In this document: piece by piece, positions 17,751 to 62,681 of the stretch | Layout: each line of letters opens with the position of its first letter | Position numbering within the stretch: the stretch's first letter is position 1 | Origin: Naumovozyma dairenensis CBS 421 | Taxonomy: Eukaryota > Ascomycota > Saccharomycetes > Saccharomycetales > Saccharomycetaceae | Direction: 5' to 3' | Assembly: GCF_000227115.2 (NCBI RefSeq) | Contig: NC_016481.1 | Span: forward strand, 372,001-436,000 | DNA length: 64,000 nt | The notes under the pieces: model-generated | Seen by the model: the letters and a program-made list of their open reading frames with translations, nothing else | Databases searched by the model: none | What the model was told of the DNA's origin: nothing | Made by a program: the position numbers and the translations under genes

Positions 17751-18118
17751 CTCTATCACCAGGCGTCTTTAATGGAACCAAACTGCTTCTCTAGAAGTAT
17801 ATGTTTAGTTTGTTTTAATTATGTTTTTGTACATTATCTCTTTTATTTTATATAGCCAACAGAATAAGACATAAAATTAATTTTACAAGCAGGATTAGTA
17901 TTTGACGTGACATATTAATCAATAGTAGTTTTTTAGATACTAAATTACCCATCTTTGGCTAAGGCTAAGAAAACACGTGAACTTTATCAACGAAGAAAAG
18001 TATGNNNNNNNNNNNNNNNNNNNNACTACAATGGAATGCTGATGCCTCATTCGTATTCACACTTAAATGTATATTTAGAAATATTATAAATTACATATAT
18101 ATTAGGTACGTAAGTTAT
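17751..18118. other. GAR1-MSN5 convergent spacer with assembly gap
   Basis: GAR1 and MSN5 end toward each other. The spacer contains 20 undetermined bases at 18005-18024, so the true distance is unknown, and the GAR1-MSN5 link depends on scaffolding. Confidence 0.8.
18005..18024. other. assembly gap (20 N)
   Basis: Twenty consecutive N were placed by the assembler. The round number suggests a placeholder. A missing gene of the ancestral block could lie here. Confidence 0.95.
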
Positions 18119-54179: not shown

Positions 54180-57100
54180 ATGGACGTATGTGATTGATAT
54201 CATCGGTTCATTTTGCACAAAGCAACAAAATTCCCCATTTATTATGAAGAGCACCTAATACTAACCCTCATTTCATTAATCTTATCACATCATTGTTTTG
54301 TGAGCTCTTTTATTTATTATTTCTATTTAAGAGTTCCGAGCCTATACTTGTGATTCGTTGCGTTCCCTTCAAATAAATATAGAATTTGAGAAGAAAAGAA
54401 CTACATGAATTGAATACTAGAGCATGGGCTGGTGAGGAAGTCTATCAATTGAAAAGCCAGAAATTGGACTCCAGTATAAAAAGAAATACCGGGTTTATTA
54501 AAAAACTGAAGAAAGGGTTTGTCAAAGAATCTACTCCATCTTTATTGAAAGAACTATCAGAACTTTCGCTTGAAAAATATCTATCAGAAGTTATTGCTAC
54601 AGTAAACGAAGTTTTATATTCCATTTCCAATAAAAATGATGACATCATTTCTGCTGTAGAAATAATAAGTGCGCTACATCAAAGATTCAATCAAAGATTT
54701 ACTTGTGAGTTATTTCAATTGTTTTTGAATAATTTTGAAAACCCAACGATTGAAAAAAGCACTGAAAAAGAAGAATTACTGAGGATTACTAGGCTTAAGG
54801 CAAAAACTAACATATTAACAGAACTATATCTTGTTGGTGTCTTTACGTCATTAGAGAACACTAACTCGAAAGATGCCTTGCCTGCCTATTTACAAAGGAA
54901 AGTCCGTAGAAAAGAGCCTATTATATTTAGTGTTTTAAAGGAAAATTTGAACTATAGATTCAAGCTGGGATATACCACTATACTAGCAACATCATTTATT
55001 AAACGATATCCTATGTTGATAGAAAATGAAGATACGCCGTTGGACGATATTATCTACGATACAACATTAAAGGCTTCCCTTCAGACCTTATTTAAAGTCT
55101 TTTCAGAAGCAGTTTTCACAAGAACAAAAGATTTAAATAAACAAATCAATAAATTAACCAAAGCACATCAAAAATGTCAAATACGAACAGGTAAATCTAC
55201 GGATGAATATAGTGAAGAACGTGATGGTTTAGTTCCGATTTTTGACAGATTTAAAATTGCATCTGATACTTTTGCTGAGTTCTTCAAAATTGAACCTCTA
55301 AACTTGGAGAATGTTAATGACGTAAATGAATCTTTAGATGAAGCTAACACGGCACCTATTGTGGCCAACGCTGGTTCATCGATTGCCGAAAAACTATGGG
55401 AAAACGAAGAAGTTCGAAAGTTTTATGAAGTGTTACCAAGTATCGATGAAATTGTAGAACAGTCAAAGAAAGAAAATAAAATCGGAACTGCAGACCAAAT
55501 TAACTCCTTTTTCCATAGCTTGGATAAAATTGACACAAAAGAAGAAATTGATCAAATATCTATAGACTATTGGACGAGTGGGATTGATAACAAAGCGACA
55601 AGAAATAGATTATTAAAATTTTTCATTGAAACTCAAGATTGGAGTAAGATTAAAGTATACGCTCGTTTCTTGGCAACTACAAATAAATATCTACCTGAAG
55701 TAACAGAAGAATTTATCAAATATTTGGATAATGGTTTTCGGAGTCAGTTACATTCAAATAGAATTAACGTTAAAAATATCATTTTCTATAGCGAAATGAT
55801 GAAATTCATGTTAATCCCATCATTTATGATATTCCATAAAATTCGATCTTTAATCTTAAATATGCTTATTCCCAATAATATCGAAATTTTAACAGTGTTT
55901 TTGGAACATTCTGGTAAGTTCTTAATTAACAAGCCTGAACTGAAACCACAAATGGAAAAGATGGTACAATTAATCCAAGAGAAGAAAAGGGATAGACAAT
56001 TGAATTTAAACACCAAGAGTGCTTTGGAAAATATTATGGCATTACTTTATCCACCATCAATGAAATCATTAAATGTTGACAAAAAGGAGTATACACCGGA
56101 GCAGCAATTCTTCCGTATCCTAATTAGAAGTGAATTATCAAACATTGATCCAAGGTATGCAATTAAGATACTTCGAAAGGCGCACTGGGAAAATCCAGAA
56201 ACAACTAGGACTTTATTTTCTTTATTTACCAAACCAGGGAAGATAAATTATCAAAATTTGCCGACAATGGCCAAATTATTGAATGGGTTATTTACCTACC
56301 ATAGAGAATTTATTATAAAATGTATTGATCAGATCTTAGAGAATATCGAAGGTGGATTAGAGACGAATCTTTATGCTGAAAATAGACATAGAGTAGCAAA
56401 TGTGAAATATCTAACGGAAATTTTTAATATGGAAATGATTAAATCTGATGTTTTATTAGCCAAATTATATCAAATTTTACAATTTGGGCATCAAAATGGT
56501 CAACCCAATCCTTTCTCCTTGAATGAGTTGGACCCTCCAGATAATTATTTTAGAATCCAATTAACAACTACTGCACTGCTAAGTCTGAAAAGGTTCCCAA
56601 GTACTTTGCTTAAGAAATTGAAGATATTTCTACCATTTTTTGATTATTACATTTTCACGAAAAATCAACCACTACCTAAGGAAGTCGAATTTAGAATCAT
56701 TGAATCCCTTGATAATTTGGATACCTTAGGTAAGATCAAGTTCAACAGATCAGGGTCTCTATATGAAAGTGCTCAAAAGTTAGGAACTCTCGTGAGAAAA
56801 GTAACACCAGGAACTAAAAATAACAAGAAAGAGACATCGGTGAGGGGTGATTCTATGGTCCAAGTTTTTAAGAATGCCAGATTGCAAAATATGTCCGAGG
56901 ATAAGGATACTGGAGAAAGTGCAGGTGATTCTGAAGAAGAGGAAGAAGAAAATGATGAAGGTATTGAATTTCCTGATGATTCTGACGACGAAGCTACTTT
57001 GAACATTAACGATGATGAGGATACAGAGAGGGTAAGAGATCTTCACGGTGGTTCAGAAGGAGAAGAGAGCGGGGAGAATGATTCAAGCTCAGAATCTAAT

Positions 57101-57619
57101 GACACAGACGACGACAACGACGACAGTGATGACGGAAGCAATGAAGATGAAAGTGATAAAGAAGAAGATTTTAGAGATATCGATGCAGATAGAAATGCAG
57201 AATTGAAGAGAATGTATGGAGAATATAAGAAAAAATTGAAAGCAGAAGAGGAAAGAAAAGTTGAAGATGAATTGGAGAAACAATTTAAACAAATTTTACA
57301 AGAATCAATGGAAACGCGGAAAACTGAAAAGAGTTCAGGAGGGAAAATTCCAATGATCGGAAATATTCCTAATAAACAAGATATCATACCAATTGCTACG
57401 AAGGATAATGACATTGCAAGACAACCAGCATATGTTTCTGAGAAACCGAATAAAGTAAAGTTTACATTCTTGGCAAGATCAGGTAAAAAGACCCAATCAA
57501 GACAATTGGAGCTGCCAACCAATATTAAGTTTGTTTCTGATGTCCTCGAGGAAGAGGAAAGATTAAAGTCAGAAAGAGAAAAAATTAGGAAAATTGTTTT
57601 ACAACGTTCGTTTGATTAA
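54180..57619 (+). CDS. NMD2: Nmd2/Upf2, nonsense-mediated mRNA decay factor (spliced)
   Basis: Two exons, 54180-54185 (ATGGAC) and 54383-57619, give 1080 residues starting MDNLRRKELHELNTRAW; S. cerevisiae Nmd2 (YHR077C, 1089 residues) starts MDDGRKKELHDLNTRAW and also has an intron just after the start. The protein holds three MIF4G-type helical regions (about 25-220, 400-560, 590-790), a long Asp/Glu-rich stretch (about 845-940) and a C-terminal region that binds Upf1. It bridges Upf1 and Upf3 on mRNAs with early stop codons. Without splicing, the ATG runs only five codons to a TGA. Confidence 0.94.
54186..54382 (+). other. NMD2: NMD2 intron
   Basis: The 197-base intron has donor GTATGT (54186-54191), perfect branch site TACTAAC (54259-54265) and acceptor TAG (54380-54382), the first TAG or CAG after the branch site although 118 bases away. 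Phase is 0. The first exon codes only Met-Asp. The unspliced message would itself be a decay substrate, as in S. cerevisiae. Confidence 0.9.
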
Positions 57620-57943: not shown

Positions 57944-59101
57944 TCATTCCACTTTGACTAGAACTACTGTAATATCATCTTCCTTCCCACCTTTATATAG
58001 CCTTCCAGTTAATCTTGAATATTCTTGAGAGAATACACTTGGATAATCTGGATCTTTACTTAAGTTGACAACTTTTGAAACAAAATCTTTCGTCATTGCA
58101 TTTAGTTCTTTACTAGTTGATAGTTTCTCTGAGTTATCCTTTAAGAATAAACTTATATCATCTGTGGAGATATTATCCGTAACACCATCAGTAGCTAAAA
58201 TAACAATATCATTCTGGGACAATTGGAAAGAATACTCATCTACATCAGCCGGTGTATTTCTAATGTACGATGTACCCTTCAAACGAGCTTCTTCAAGCAA
58301 ATGTTTGGGAATAATTGATAATTGGTATGGTGCATTGAATCCAACAGTTTGGAACTTTGTTTGAAAGACTAATTTATAATTTCTAAACACACCACACCAT
58401 GAATCACCTAAATTTGCTACATTTAAAGTACCATTTTTTTGGAAATGGGCCACGATAGAAGTTGTTCCACCGACTTCAACAATCTTATCATTTTGAATTT
58501 TTTCAAACGCAACATCCATAAGATCCTTAGGAGAAATCACATCCGAGTATTTTTGATTCTTAGATGATACTAAAGTCGCAGTGGCTAATTGGTCCATTGC
58601 TCTACAAAGCTCTCTTGAGATAGCGCTTGAATCATAGTTTCTTTCTGCCCAACCGCCTACACCATCTGCTACACCGGCGTAAACGTCGTTAGAATCAATG
58701 GAAGCGATGAAGAAATTATCTTCTCCCGTAGGAGACATTAAAGAATCTTTTAAATTCTTATATATTTGATCATCTCTATCCTTTGGTTGATATGCAACGA
58801 ACGTTTTATAATTGAGTGGAGATGATGAGACTTCTGATCCATTTGCATTTGTCGAATTTGAGTAGTTATTATGCGAGTAATAGGACGACGAAGATGTAGA
58901 AAAGAAAGATTTCCTTCTAGCTAATTGTGGGAATAATGGCTTCCATGTAGAAGTTGAATGGAATGGAGATTCTGGGAATTGTATTAGTAACCAATGAGCA
59001 AGTAACGATAAAAGAAGCAATGCTATGGCAAACCGCGTGAACATACTGGAAGAAAATACCGAGGCACCTCTTAGGGATCTTAGACCAGAGGAAACAAACA
59101 T
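57944..59101 (-). CDS. PTC7: Ptc7, PP2C-type phosphatase with optional in-frame intron
   Basis: Type 2C protein phosphatase motifs are present: ADGVGGWAE (Asp146-Gly147, unspliced numbering), GDSWCGVF, ATDGVTDN and EDDITVVLV. The whole region reads as 385 codons. A 75-base in-frame intron (58972-59046) can also be removed, giving 360 residues. The retained form contains a hydrophobic helix (about residues 24-41) coded by the intron; the spliced form keeps an Arg/Ser-rich, import-like N-terminus. In S. cerevisiae (YHR076W) spliced Ptc7 is mitochondrial, where it activates the coenzyme Q enzyme Coq7, and the unspliced form sits in the nuclear envelope. The same dual output is expected here. Confidence 0.94.
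   Translation of the reverse strand: MFVSSGLRSLRGASVFSSSMFTRFAIALLLLSLLAHWLLIQFPESPFHSTSTWKPLFPQLARRKSFFSTSSSSYYSHNNYSNSTNANGSEVSSSPLNYKTFVAYQPKDRDDQIYKNLKDSLMSPTGEDNFFIASIDSNDVYAGVADGVGGWAERNYDSSAISRELCRAMDQLATATLVSSKNQKYSDVISPKDLMDVAFEKIQNDKIVEVGGTTSIVAHFQKNGTLNVANLGDSWCGVFRNYKLVFQTKFQTVGFNAPYQLSIIPKHLLEEARLKGTSYIRNTPADVDEYSFQLSQNDIVILATDGVTDNISTDDISLFLKDNSEKLSTSKELNAMTKDFVSKVVNLSKDPDYPSVFSQEYSRLTGRLYKGGKEDDITVVLVKVE
58972..59046 (-). other. PTC7: PTC7 in-frame intron encoding a membrane segment
   Basis: On the minus strand the donor is GTATGT (59046-59041), a branch-like TACTAAT lies at 58989-58983, and the acceptor is CAG ending at 58972. Length is 75 bases, divisible by three, with no stop. 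It encodes 24 whole residues, mostly Leu, Ile, Ala and Phe, that form a membrane helix. Joining after base 1 of codon 19 creates a Lys codon and keeps the frame. Confidence 0.85.
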
Positions 59102-59666: not shown

Positions 59667-60965
59667 ATGTCTCATCTGCCAATTTATACACACCGTGCTC
59701 CTGCCTCAACTTCTACATCAACCAAGATTAAACGATTAAGTGCTACCGATATATCCATACGAGAAGAAGCTGAGCCGTGTGAATTACATGATCGATTATT
59801 TTGTGCAATATGTCAAGCTGCTAATGAAGAAAAGATGAATCAAGTATTGAAAAGATCAATTTCCTATAATGCTGTGAATAATGTGAAAAAGAGAACATCC
59901 ATTACTAATCTTCATAGAACCTTATCTCAGACAAGTTGTTACAGTATAGGCTCTTTACAATCGAAGCAAGATCTAACTAGTGAGCCATTCAACGAATTTT
60001 TAGATTATCTTGTCAATGATAATTATGTCAGTAAGGCAAATTTAGTATGGGAAAATTTACCCAAGGAAACAAGAGATATTTTTGTTGCTAAGGCTATGGC
60101 CAAGAATAAACACAAAGATCAGGCTCGACAAATCCACCCAGATATCATTGAATTACTGCAAAGTCAAAAGCAGAATCCACACAGGAAGGTACATACATCG
60201 ACTTGGAGGAATCGCAAGTCCGATTATATGCAGCTGTTTTCGGATCATCCAAAGGATATTCCCAATAGAAGGGCTCAAAACATAACTGAAATACTGAATC
60301 AATTCTGTGCATATGATTTAACTGATTCTGAGAGGGAATATATAATACACAAACTTAAAGCCCGACAGCAAAAACCTCCAGAAGAGGAGGAAGGGAAAAG
60401 ATGTACCAACACAGTGGAAGAGAATATATTTCTTGCACATCACCAATTCAAAGACAAGACCAAAGACACTTCTGTTGCAGACCCATACCTAAAAGAGATT
60501 ACTGAAAAGATAAATCAATTGAATAGTATCATGCAACGACTGGAAAAATTCTCTCCAGCAACAACTCCAATAACGGCGGATGCAGATCTTTCTCTAGGAA
60601 GTACACCGACTAGTCCTATGTTTTCATCTGGACCGTCAACGACCGCAACTACTTCCGACCATATACCGATACCATCCTCACTGACAAGCCCTCTTCAAGC
60701 TCAAGCATCTACAAAGGTGACGCAGAAATCTAAACTATTATCTCATCCAACCCGATCATTAGGTACTCGAACTGAAACTTCCAGCAAACACCATAATAAC
60801 ACTGAGAAGAAGGAGAACTTCTTCGATATGCTTGCTCTTAAGTCCAAGAGATTTATGGGTCGGTTTAAACACAAGAAACCGACAAAGCTTGATTTGTATA
60901 GAAAACCAAATCCTGATATTAGAGTATTCGTGAATCCATCGGCAAACAAAAAACAAAACTCGTGA
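59667..60965 (+). CDS. unrecognised protein with an HMG-box-like segment
   Basis: This 432-residue frame has no counterpart between PTC7 and PPE1 in S. cerevisiae, and I do not recognise it. Normal codon use and a clean ATG support a real gene. It is basic and Ser/Thr-rich. Cys38, His41, Cys46 and Cys49 form a compact CELH...CAIC cluster that could bind zinc. Residues 107-160 (FNEFLDYLV, VWENLPKETRDIFVAKAM, KNKHK, HPDI) follow the spacing of hydrophobic, Trp, Lys-His and Pro residues of an HMG box, in divergent form. A heptad-like segment lies near 278-298. The C-terminus is Lys/Arg-rich. There is no signal peptide or membrane helix. A nuclear role is inference only. Confidence 0.75.
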   Translation: MSHLPIYTHRAPASTSTSTKIKRLSATDISIREEAEPCELHDRLFCAICQAANEEKMNQVLKRSISYNAVNNVKKRTSITNLHRTLSQTSCYSIGSLQSKQDLTSEPFNEFLDYLVNDNYVSKANLVWENLPKETRDIFVAKAMAKNKHKDQARQIHPDIIELLQSQKQNPHRKVHTSTWRNRKSDYMQLFSDHPKDIPNRRAQNITEILNQFCAYDLTDSEREYIIHKLKARQQKPPEEEEGKRCTNTVEENIFLAHHQFKDKTKDTSVADPYLKEITEKINQLNSIMQRLEKFSPATTPITADADLSLGSTPTSPMFSSGPSTTATTSDHIPIPSSLTSPLQAQASTKVTQKSKLLSHPTRSLGTRTETSSKHHNNTEKKENFFDMLALKSKRFMGRFKHKKPTKLDLYRKPNPDIRVFVNPSANKKQNS

Positions 60966-61457: not shown

Positions 61458-62681
61458 ATGAGTCAAGATTTACGCAGGAAGTTAATTTTAAAACAATTAG
61501 ACAAACTAAATAACAACGAAGAAATACCCAATTCGAATTTAGATACTCTGGGACAATTACCTTCCTTCCCTAAAAAAAGTATTAGTAAAGAAAAACAACA
61601 TACACGAAACTTAAAAAATGATGCCCTCCAATTACCTTCCTGGAAAGATTTCTTCACGAAGAATGAAGTGGTGACCCTTAAAGATCGGAATTTCCAATTT
61701 AATACTTATTTCACTCTACCAACCTCCCATAAGAACAACTCCGTTACATACAGCGAGAATCTGACTACTTCATCCAGTACCGCAGACTGTACAATACCCA
61801 TATATATCTTTCATCACGGTGCTGGATCTTCTGGATTATCATTTGCAAATCTAGCAAAAGAAGTCTATGAGCGCTCAAGCGGTAAATGTGGTTGTTTCTC
61901 ATTCGATGCAAGAGGACATGGGAAAACAGTACCAATAGATCCTACTAAACCTATCTCTTATGGGAGGGAAATTTTTGTTCAAGATTTTAAATCCCTTATA
62001 ACTTGGTTTTATCAAACCCAACTCATAGAAATCTTTAGTTCAAAACAAAATGAAAAGAAACATATATCATTAATATTGGTGGGTCATTCATTAGGCGGAA
62101 GCATATGTACCTTTGTCCACCCATCTTTGGACAAGATGATAAGATCGCATGTTTTAGGAGTTGCCATGTTCGATATTGTGGAAGAAGCTGCCATTTTAGC
62201 ATTAGAAAAGGTAGATCATTTCTTGAAAAATACACCAAACGCTTTCAACTCTTATGAAGATGCTATTGGTTGGTATATGAAACATAAACTATCAAGGACC
62301 AAAACAAGTGCAGAAATTGCTGTCCCATCTTTATTTGCTCCAGTAGAGGGTGATACAAGCCAAGTTACTAGGATTACAAATTTGAAAGACTTTAGTCCTT
62401 ATTGGAGTACATGGTTTACAGACTTATCGCACTCTTTTGTCACCTTACCAACTGCAAAGTTATTAATATTAGCAGGAGATGATAGATTAGATAAAGAATT
62501 GATTATTGGTCAGATGCAAGGGAAATACCAACTTGTTGTATTTCAAGATTCAGGGCATTTCATTCAAGAGGATTCTCCGATGAAAACGGCTCTTACTTTA
62601 CTGGAATTCTGGAAGAGAAATGACAATACTAACGTTATAATAAAGTCAAACTGGGGATCTAGCACAAACAAAAATCAATGA
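61458..62681 (+). CDS. PPE1: Ppe1, protein phosphatase 2A methylesterase
   Basis: The 407-residue alpha/beta hydrolase matches S. cerevisiae Ppe1 (YHR075C, 400 residues). It removes the methyl ester from the C-terminal Leu of PP2A catalytic subunits, opposing Ppm1. The oxyanion segment HHGAGSSG lies near residue 120, the nucleophile elbow GHSLGG has Ser211, and the catalytic His367 is in DSGHFIQED. The Asp of the triad is probably in FDIVEEAA, as in mammalian PME-1. The ATG at 61458 gives the family length. The gene converges with QNS1. Confidence 0.94.
   Translation: MSQDLRRKLILKQLDKLNNNEEIPNSNLDTLGQLPSFPKKSISKEKQHTRNLKNDALQLPSWKDFFTKNEVVTLKDRNFQFNTYFTLPTSHKNNSVTYSENLTTSSSTADCTIPIYIFHHGAGSSGLSFANLAKEVYERSSGKCGCFSFDARGHGKTVPIDPTKPISYGREIFVQDFKSLITWFYQTQLIEIFSSKQNEKKHISLILVGHSLGGSICTFVHPSLDKMIRSHVLGVAMFDIVEEAAILALEKVDHFLKNTPNAFNSYEDAIGWYMKHKLSRTKTSAEIAVPSLFAPVEGDTSQVTRITNLKDFSPYWSTWFTDLSHSFVTLPTAKLLILAGDDRLDKELIIGQMQGKYQLVVFQDSGHFIQEDSPMKTALTLLEFWKRNDNTNVIIKSNWGSSTNKNQ

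What the first reader, a model, noticed from the sequence alone, without database searches (positions are those of the whole stretch)
58972..59046. PTC7 keeps an in-frame, optionally spliced intron that encodes a membrane helix
The sequence shows GTATGT, TACTAAT and CAG around 75 bases with no stop, divisible by three, whose translation is a Leu-rich membrane segment. S. cerevisiae PTC7 is the known case of functional alternative splicing in yeast: spliced form mitochondrial, retained form in the nuclear envelope. Tetrapisispora blattae is reported to have split the two forms between duplicates. This species keeps both forms in one gene. The branch site departs from TACTAAC, which may favour retention.
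Basis: partly seen in the sequence, partly recalled or inferred. Interest (0 to 1): 0.75.

Follow-up and report, generated by a model that had tools for sequence, protein, structure and literature searches.

The report
PTC7's coding intron, already described
A yeast phosphatase gene carries a short intron that can be cut out or left in and translated as a membrane anchor; this is real but already published for this species' gene, although related yeasts suggest that the anchor is older than the intron.

Summary
At 58972-59046 (-) the PTC7 orthologue (57944-59101, -) holds 75 nt with GTATGT, TACTAAT and CAG: phase 1, divisible by three, no stop. Retained, it encodes a hydrophobic segment; removed, it leaves a 360-aa protein with a basic N-terminus. 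The genome (13,527,580 bp, 11 contigs) fits Naumovozyma dairenensis, and searches found one PTC7. It is already known: Marshall et al. 2013 (PMC3597508) name N. dairenensis in the legend of their spliced/unspliced alignment and report one helix in each post-WGD retained form. The weak branch site is not special to this species: 52 of 59 helix-bearing models of its clade carry protein echoes of both splice signals, and many show Ile where TACTAAC would give Thr. Two helix-bearing relatives, one of them an intron-free T. blattae gene, lack both echoes. A lead beyond the finding: 12 of 14 Phaffomycetales-type and 44 of 80 CUG-Ser1-type models also have an N-terminal helix, almost never with both echoes. 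The helix may thus predate the intron (intronization). CUG-Ser1-type models also have a conserved Met at the helix end (39 of 48), possibly a second start. No RNA was available; splicing was not observed here.

The parts
57944..59101 (-). PTC7 orthologue, PP2C phosphatase; 385 aa if the intron is retained, 360 aa if spliced
59047..59101 (-). exon 1, 55 nt, ends in phase 1
58972..59046 (-). in-frame 75-nt intron encoding a hydrophobic, helix-like segment if retained
59041..59046 (-). 5' splice site GTATGT, read in frame as (A)GT ATG T = Ser-Met
58983..58989 (-). branch site TACTAAT, read in frame inside TTA CTA ATA = Leu-Leu-Ile
58972..58974 (-). 3' splice site CAG, 12 nt from the branch A
57944..58971 (-). 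exon 2 with the PP2C catalytic domain; the spliced junction codon is AAA (Lys), whereas the retained form has GAA (Glu) across the intron end

Best explanation
This is the N. dairenensis copy of the alternatively spliced PTC7 gene of the Saccharomycetaceae. If the intron is spliced out, the N-terminus is an uninterrupted basic presequence and the phosphatase goes to mitochondria. If the intron is kept, its 25 codons add a membrane helix and one acidic residue, and the phosphatase is anchored in the nuclear envelope/ER. A non-consensus branch site and a short branch-to-3'-end distance may keep splicing incomplete. Shown here: the anatomy, a single copy found, and, at protein level, conservation of both splice-signal echoes and the open frame in relatives. 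Inferred from S. cerevisiae: localisation and regulation. Inference only: incomplete splicing in this species.
For: Intron anatomy and frame. Nearest named homologues are Ptc7-type; Pfam PP2C and SpoIIE. One copy found in the genome, next hit E = 0.06. Neighbours are a Upf2-domain gene and an alpha/beta hydrolase, which fits S. cerevisiae YHR077C and YHR075C (recalled). Both splice-signal echoes in 52 of 59 helix-bearing models of the clade, against mean 5.0 and maximum 13 of 59 in 200 shuffles. First 60 residues: net charge +7 with no acidic residue when spliced, +3 with one when retained. Published: PMC3597508 abstract, section 11 and passages incl. Fig. S4 legend; PMC6506691 passage; PMC11239977 passage for ER and/or nuclear envelope.
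Against: No RNA or protein evidence from this species was available. For relatives only proteins were seen, so their splice sites are inferred from residues, and most models come from gene callers that prefer open frames. The species is assigned from genome size and contig number, not from a named record. No dedicated helix or presequence predictor was available.
Confidence: 0.92

Rival explanations
1. The segment is no longer spliced in this species: the signals are relics and PTC7 makes only the membrane-anchored form.
For: The branch site departs from TACTAAC and lies only 12 nt from the 3' end. The neighbouring Upf2-type gene has TACTAAC about 118 nt from an apparent 3' end (my count). T. 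blattae shows that loss of splicing can happen.
Against: Both signals are intact, whereas the two helix-bearing clade members that look splice-free (P0074 of T. blattae and the unnamed P0080) lack both echoes. No second gene that could supply the mitochondrial form was found.
Confidence: 0.05
2. The intron is always removed and the open frame is chance.
For: 29% of 75-nt pieces of this window are open, one length in three is 3n (arithmetic), and gene callers favour open frames, so relatives with a stop in the intron would appear as short models.
Against: The retained frame is open and hydrophobic in 59 of 70 clade models, the window's own included. S. cerevisiae is reported to make both forms (PMC3597508 and PMC6506691 passages).
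Confidence: 0.03
3. The helix form is made by initiation at the intronic Met20 (the ATG inside GTATGT) rather than from the normal start on retained RNA.
For: The ATG is in frame with A at -3. Five clade models without the 5' echo (P0026, P0029, P0031, P0032, P0035) begin with a Met just before the helix, probably this one.
Against: The residue is K or T in some relatives (SKF in P0047, STW in P0070, GTF in P0010), as expected of GTANGT splice sites and not of a start codon. Model starts may be gene-caller choices.
Confidence: 0.05

Closest known systems
Saccharomyces cerevisiae PTC7 (YHR076W)
   Same: One gene, a retained-or-spliced intron near the N-terminus that encodes a predicted helix, no consensus branch point (PMC6506691 passage)
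   Different: 75-nt intron here; about 93 nt in Saccharomyces (31 residues, from the 374-aa S. arboricola and 343-aa S. mikatae models). No expression data here.
Tetrapisispora blattae PTC7a/PTC7b
   Same: Same two predicted protein types
   Different: Two genes, one per form (PMC3597508 section 11); one gene found here
Lachancea kluyveri SKI7/HBS1
   Same: A single gene giving two proteins by alternative splicing (PMC3597508 abstract)
   Different: Alternative 3' splice sites (section heading) rather than intron retention; different gene

Membership tests
PTC7 orthologue | PP2C domain and nearest named matches called Ptc7 | tested here: met
PTC7 orthologue | Synteny with S. cerevisiae YHR075C-YHR077C | tested here: inconclusive
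   Upf2 and abhydrolase neighbours found, but the S. cerevisiae order is recalled, and a 432-aa ORF without Pfam match lies between
Alternatively retained Saccharomycetaceae PTC7 intron | 3n intron without stop, at the N-terminus, with yeast splice signals | tested here: met
   the branch site is one base off TACTAAC
Alternatively retained Saccharomycetaceae PTC7 intron | Intron encodes a membrane helix; spliced form has a presequence-like N-terminus | tested here: met
   By hydropathy (2.51) and charge (+7, no acidic residue in 60) only; no TM or MTS predictor was available
Alternatively retained Saccharomycetaceae PTC7 intron | Both RNAs present, carbon-source regulated | not testable with these tools
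   no RNA data
Alternatively retained Saccharomycetaceae PTC7 intron | No second PTC7 gene | tested here: met
   (one assembly, which may be incomplete)

The most novel reading that the evidence does not exclude
The membrane helix of Ptc7 is older than the intron. The ancestral yeast gene encoded an exonic N-terminal helix, and in the Saccharomycetales line GTANGT and TACTAA signals arose inside that helix-coding sequence (intronization). In CUG-Ser1-type yeasts a conserved Met at the end of the helix makes the same helix/no-helix pair by alternative initiation. One isoform switch would thus have been run by two different mechanisms, contrary to the published view that intron gain created the anchored form and that Candida lacks two-protein capacity.
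Probability: 0.45. Interest if true: 0.55.

Novelty: already known. Interest (0 to 1): 0.3.

Why it matters
PTC7 is described as the only S. cerevisiae gene known to make functional proteins from both spliced and unspliced RNA (PMC3597508), but the finding itself adds no new member: this species is in the 2013 alignment. What may be useful is the comparative lead that the helix came first. It would make PTC7 a concrete case of intronization of a coding segment, and it offers a direct test of whether other yeasts obtain the same two isoforms through start-codon choice.

Tried and rejected
Considered and dropped: a second PTC7 copy (none found); chance occurrence; a species-specific weak branch site; an intronic start codon as the reason for the conserved Met (K and T occur there).

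Juneau et al. 2009 is not held and is known here only through other papers. Fig. S4 of PMC3597508 was not seen, only its legend; it includes C. albicans and Y. lipolytica with predicted helices marked, so an outgroup helix may already be visible there. PMC4202332 has no mention of PTC7 or YHR076W in its main text. Structure prediction was not run. One protein search and one paper search were left unused.

Weak points of my counts. Both homologue lists are capped: 120 of 343 hits shown, 120 of 2947. Of the 185 proteins (the window's own included), 182 are on the tree and 3 (P0049, P0052, P0075) lacked the anchor motif; 21 belong to none of the three clades. Among 10 helix-bearing unplaced proteins, 5 have both echoes (P0052, P0063, P0066, P0071, P0090). 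Single echoes are common by chance (shuffle means 17.4 and 17.2 of 59) and occur in outgroups: 5' echo in 5 of 12 Phaffomycetales-type and 5 of 44 CUG-Ser1-type, branch echo in 1 of 12 and 10 of 44. The Ile/Thr tally takes the last regex match and miscalls at least P0033; the 5' echo printed for P0068 is misplaced. P0180, helix-bearing, fell out through a length cut and was not. Four of the 21 unplaced proteins (P0085, P0089, P0115, P0175) were added by hand; without them Met at -7 is 36 of 44 by my count from the listing. The CUG-Ser1-type clade has support 0.42. A passage in PMC10653812 says CTG-clade yeasts have two Ptc7-like families, so that group may mix paralogues. The order names are recalled and laid on named members.

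Full report
What is there. The minus strand of the window encodes a 385-aa protein at 57944-59101. Pfam finds PP2C and SpoIIE domains, and several of the nearest named relatives are called Ptc7 or protein phosphatase 2C homolog 7. Its neighbours are a Upf2-domain gene (55013-57619, +) and an alpha/beta hydrolase (61458-62681, +). That fits S. cerevisiae YHR077C and YHR075C either side of PTC7 (gene order recalled). The assembly has 13,527,580 bases in 11 contigs; N. dairenensis CBS 421 is listed with 13.5 Mb and 11 chromosomes (PMC5499181, table passage seen). I take the window to be that species; it is an inference.

The intron. The stretch 58972-59046 reads GTATGT...TACTAAT...CAG, 75 nt, starting after 55 nt of the ORF, phase 1, without a stop. 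The pattern occurs once in the window against 0.10 expected. If it is retained the protein reads SMFTRFAIALLLLSLLAHWLLIQFPE here, best 17-residue hydropathy 2.51. An open frame alone is unremarkable with this composition (10,632 of 20,000 interior shuffles stay open), but only 457 of the 20,000 are open and as hydrophobic. If the intron is removed, codon 19 becomes AAA (Lys) and the Glu across the intron end disappears. The first 60 residues then have net charge +7 and no acidic residue, against +3 and one acidic residue when retained. The branch A is 12 nt from the intron end. For comparison, the neighbouring Upf2-type gene appears to start ATGGAC|GTATGT and has TACTAAC at 54259-54265, about 118 nt from an apparent TAG end at 54382 (end chosen by frame, distance counted by me). 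PMC4202332 (passages) reports lengthened branch-to-3'-end distances in Naumovozyma, so 12 nt is short for the genus; I have no median figure.

One gene. A six-frame search of the whole assembly with the protein gives this locus at E = 2.9e-255 and one further match at E = 0.06. A search with the SpoIIE family gives this locus alone.

It is in print. Marshall et al. 2013 (PMC3597508; abstract, passages and section 11 seen) state that a 3n PTC7 intron without stops had been noted in twelve Saccharomycetaceae; that each retained form of post-WGD species has one predicted helix near the N-terminus; that the spliced forms have a predicted mitochondrial signal; and that T. blattae has two genes, one per form. 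The legend of their Fig. S4 names Naumovozyma dairenensis among the sequences that can be translated from spliced or unspliced RNA. The figure itself was not seen. So this locus, as a prediction, is already known.

The branch site. A review (PMC6506691, passage) says that the S. cerevisiae intron lacks a consensus branch point. I asked whether the departure here is special. The splice signals are translated when the intron is kept. In phase 1, GTANGT gives [S/G/C/R] followed by M, K, T or R, and TACTAA gives xL followed by I or M (TACTAAT) or T (TACTAAC). The window DNA shows this directly: AGT ATG and TTA CTA ATA. I collected 185 proteins, the window's own included (120 listed of 343 hits; 65 more among 120 listed of 2947). 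Of these, 182 were placed on a tree of the catalytic domain. The window's clade has 70 members, of which 59 carry an N-terminal hydrophobic helix by my cut-off. Both echoes are present in 52 of these 59; 200 shuffles gave a mean of 5.0 and at most 13. Each echo alone is weak (shuffle means 17.4 and 17.2 of 59). The seven misses fall in two groups. Five models begin with a Met just before the helix and still have the branch echo. The other two, P0074 of T. blattae and the unnamed P0080 beside it on the tree, have a helix and neither echo. P0074 is the helix-bearing one of the two T. blattae proteins, so I take it to be the PTC7a in which Marshall et al. found no intron. The echoes therefore seem to follow splicing rather than the helix. 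At the last branch letter 33 models read Ile, 22 Thr, 2 Met and 2 have none (a rough regex tally with at least one miscall). Among named species, Ile is seen in Saccharomyces, Monosporozyma, Maudiozyma, Kazachstania africana, Torulaspora and Tetrapisispora phaffii, and Thr in Kluyveromyces, Lachancea, Eremothecium/Ashbya and Nakaseomyces. The T in the last place is thus probably widely shared and may also serve the helix, since Ile is more hydrophobic than Thr. For relatives this rests on proteins only; in K. lactis the residue after the Met is Val, so its 5' site would not be GTATGT.

The helix outside the clade. Of 14 Phaffomycetales-type models (Wickerhamomyces, Cyberlindnera and others) 12 have an N-terminal helix; of 80 CUG-Ser1-type models 44 do. 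Both echoes occur in 0 of 12 and 1 of 44 of these; single echoes occur at 5 and 1 of 12, and at 5 and 10 of 44. Among 10 helix-bearing proteins placed in none of the three clades, 5 have both echoes, including two Hanseniaspora, so the intron may be somewhat older than the Saccharomycetaceae. In an alignment of 28 hand-picked, helix-bearing sequences, the helix of all 14 outgroup members overlaps the columns of the window's intron residues. Hydrophobic composition helps such an alignment, so homology is likely but not proven. Marshall et al. [quoted passage not shown] The PSORT result speaks against reading the outgroup helix as a nuclear-envelope anchor; it does not remove the helix. The models here suggest that the helix was there first and the splice signals arose inside it. 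PMC6726248 (2019; passages) already proposed that in-frame protointrons could be the route by which the PTC7 intron evolved; its text does not contain the words transmembrane or outgroup.

A second route to two forms? In the CUG-Ser1-type group (80 clade members plus four unplaced proteins added by hand), 48 models have a helix. All 48 have a Met within 12 residues before the first basic residue after the helix, and 39 have it at exactly position -7 (36 of 44 without the four). No other column has Met in more than 5. After clustering at 80% identity it is 26 of 34, with Met in 16 of 538 other helix cells. Of the 36 models without a helix, 23 start with a Met seven residues before the first basic residue, apparently that same Met. 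The 35 residues from the last such Met have a median net charge of +5, and 41 of 48 have no acidic residue. A conserved helix upstream of a conserved Met, followed by a presequence-like stretch, is what two start codons would leave. But gene callers, not data, set these starts, and the group may mix paralogues (passage in PMC10653812), so this is a lead only. Paper searches that touch it listed no paper making this point in its title or abstract start; one search listed 40 of 172 papers and one search listed 10 of 351, and the library holds open-licence papers only.

Verdict. That both forms are made is very likely but untested here, and the claim is not new. Interest is low for the locus and moderate for the evolutionary lead.

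Noticed in passing
54186-54382 (+): The neighbouring Upf2/NMD2-type gene appears to begin ATGGAC|GTATGT with TACTAAC at 54259-54265 and an apparent TAG end at 54382; the frame is then open into the 868-aa ORF at 55013-57619, so an ATG-only gene model would miss its N-terminus.
   Followed up: partly
P0080 and P0067: Two unnamed proteins are listed beside the two T. blattae proteins (P0074 and P0073) on the tree, one with a helix and no splice echoes, the other without a helix. They may be the split pair of another species.
   Followed up: no
P0053 versus P0052: Two similar Zygosaccharomyces-like models, one of which lacks the helix segment, perhaps from a spliced transcript assembly.
   Followed up: no
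P0063, P0066: Hanseniaspora Ptc7 models show SKF before a helix, as GTAAGT would give, so the intron may extend outside Saccharomycetaceae.
   Followed up: no
CUG-Ser1-type Ptc7 models: Met at a fixed position at the end of the N-terminal helix in 39 of 48 models, a possible second start codon.
   Followed up: partly
59667-60965 (+): 432-aa ORF between PTC7 and the hydrolase gene with no Pfam match.
   Followed up: no
61751-61570 (-): Intron-like GTATGT...TACTAAT...TAG antisense to the hydrolase ORF; probably chance.
   Followed up: no
18005-18024: A run of 20 N, the only run of N in the window.
   Followed up: no
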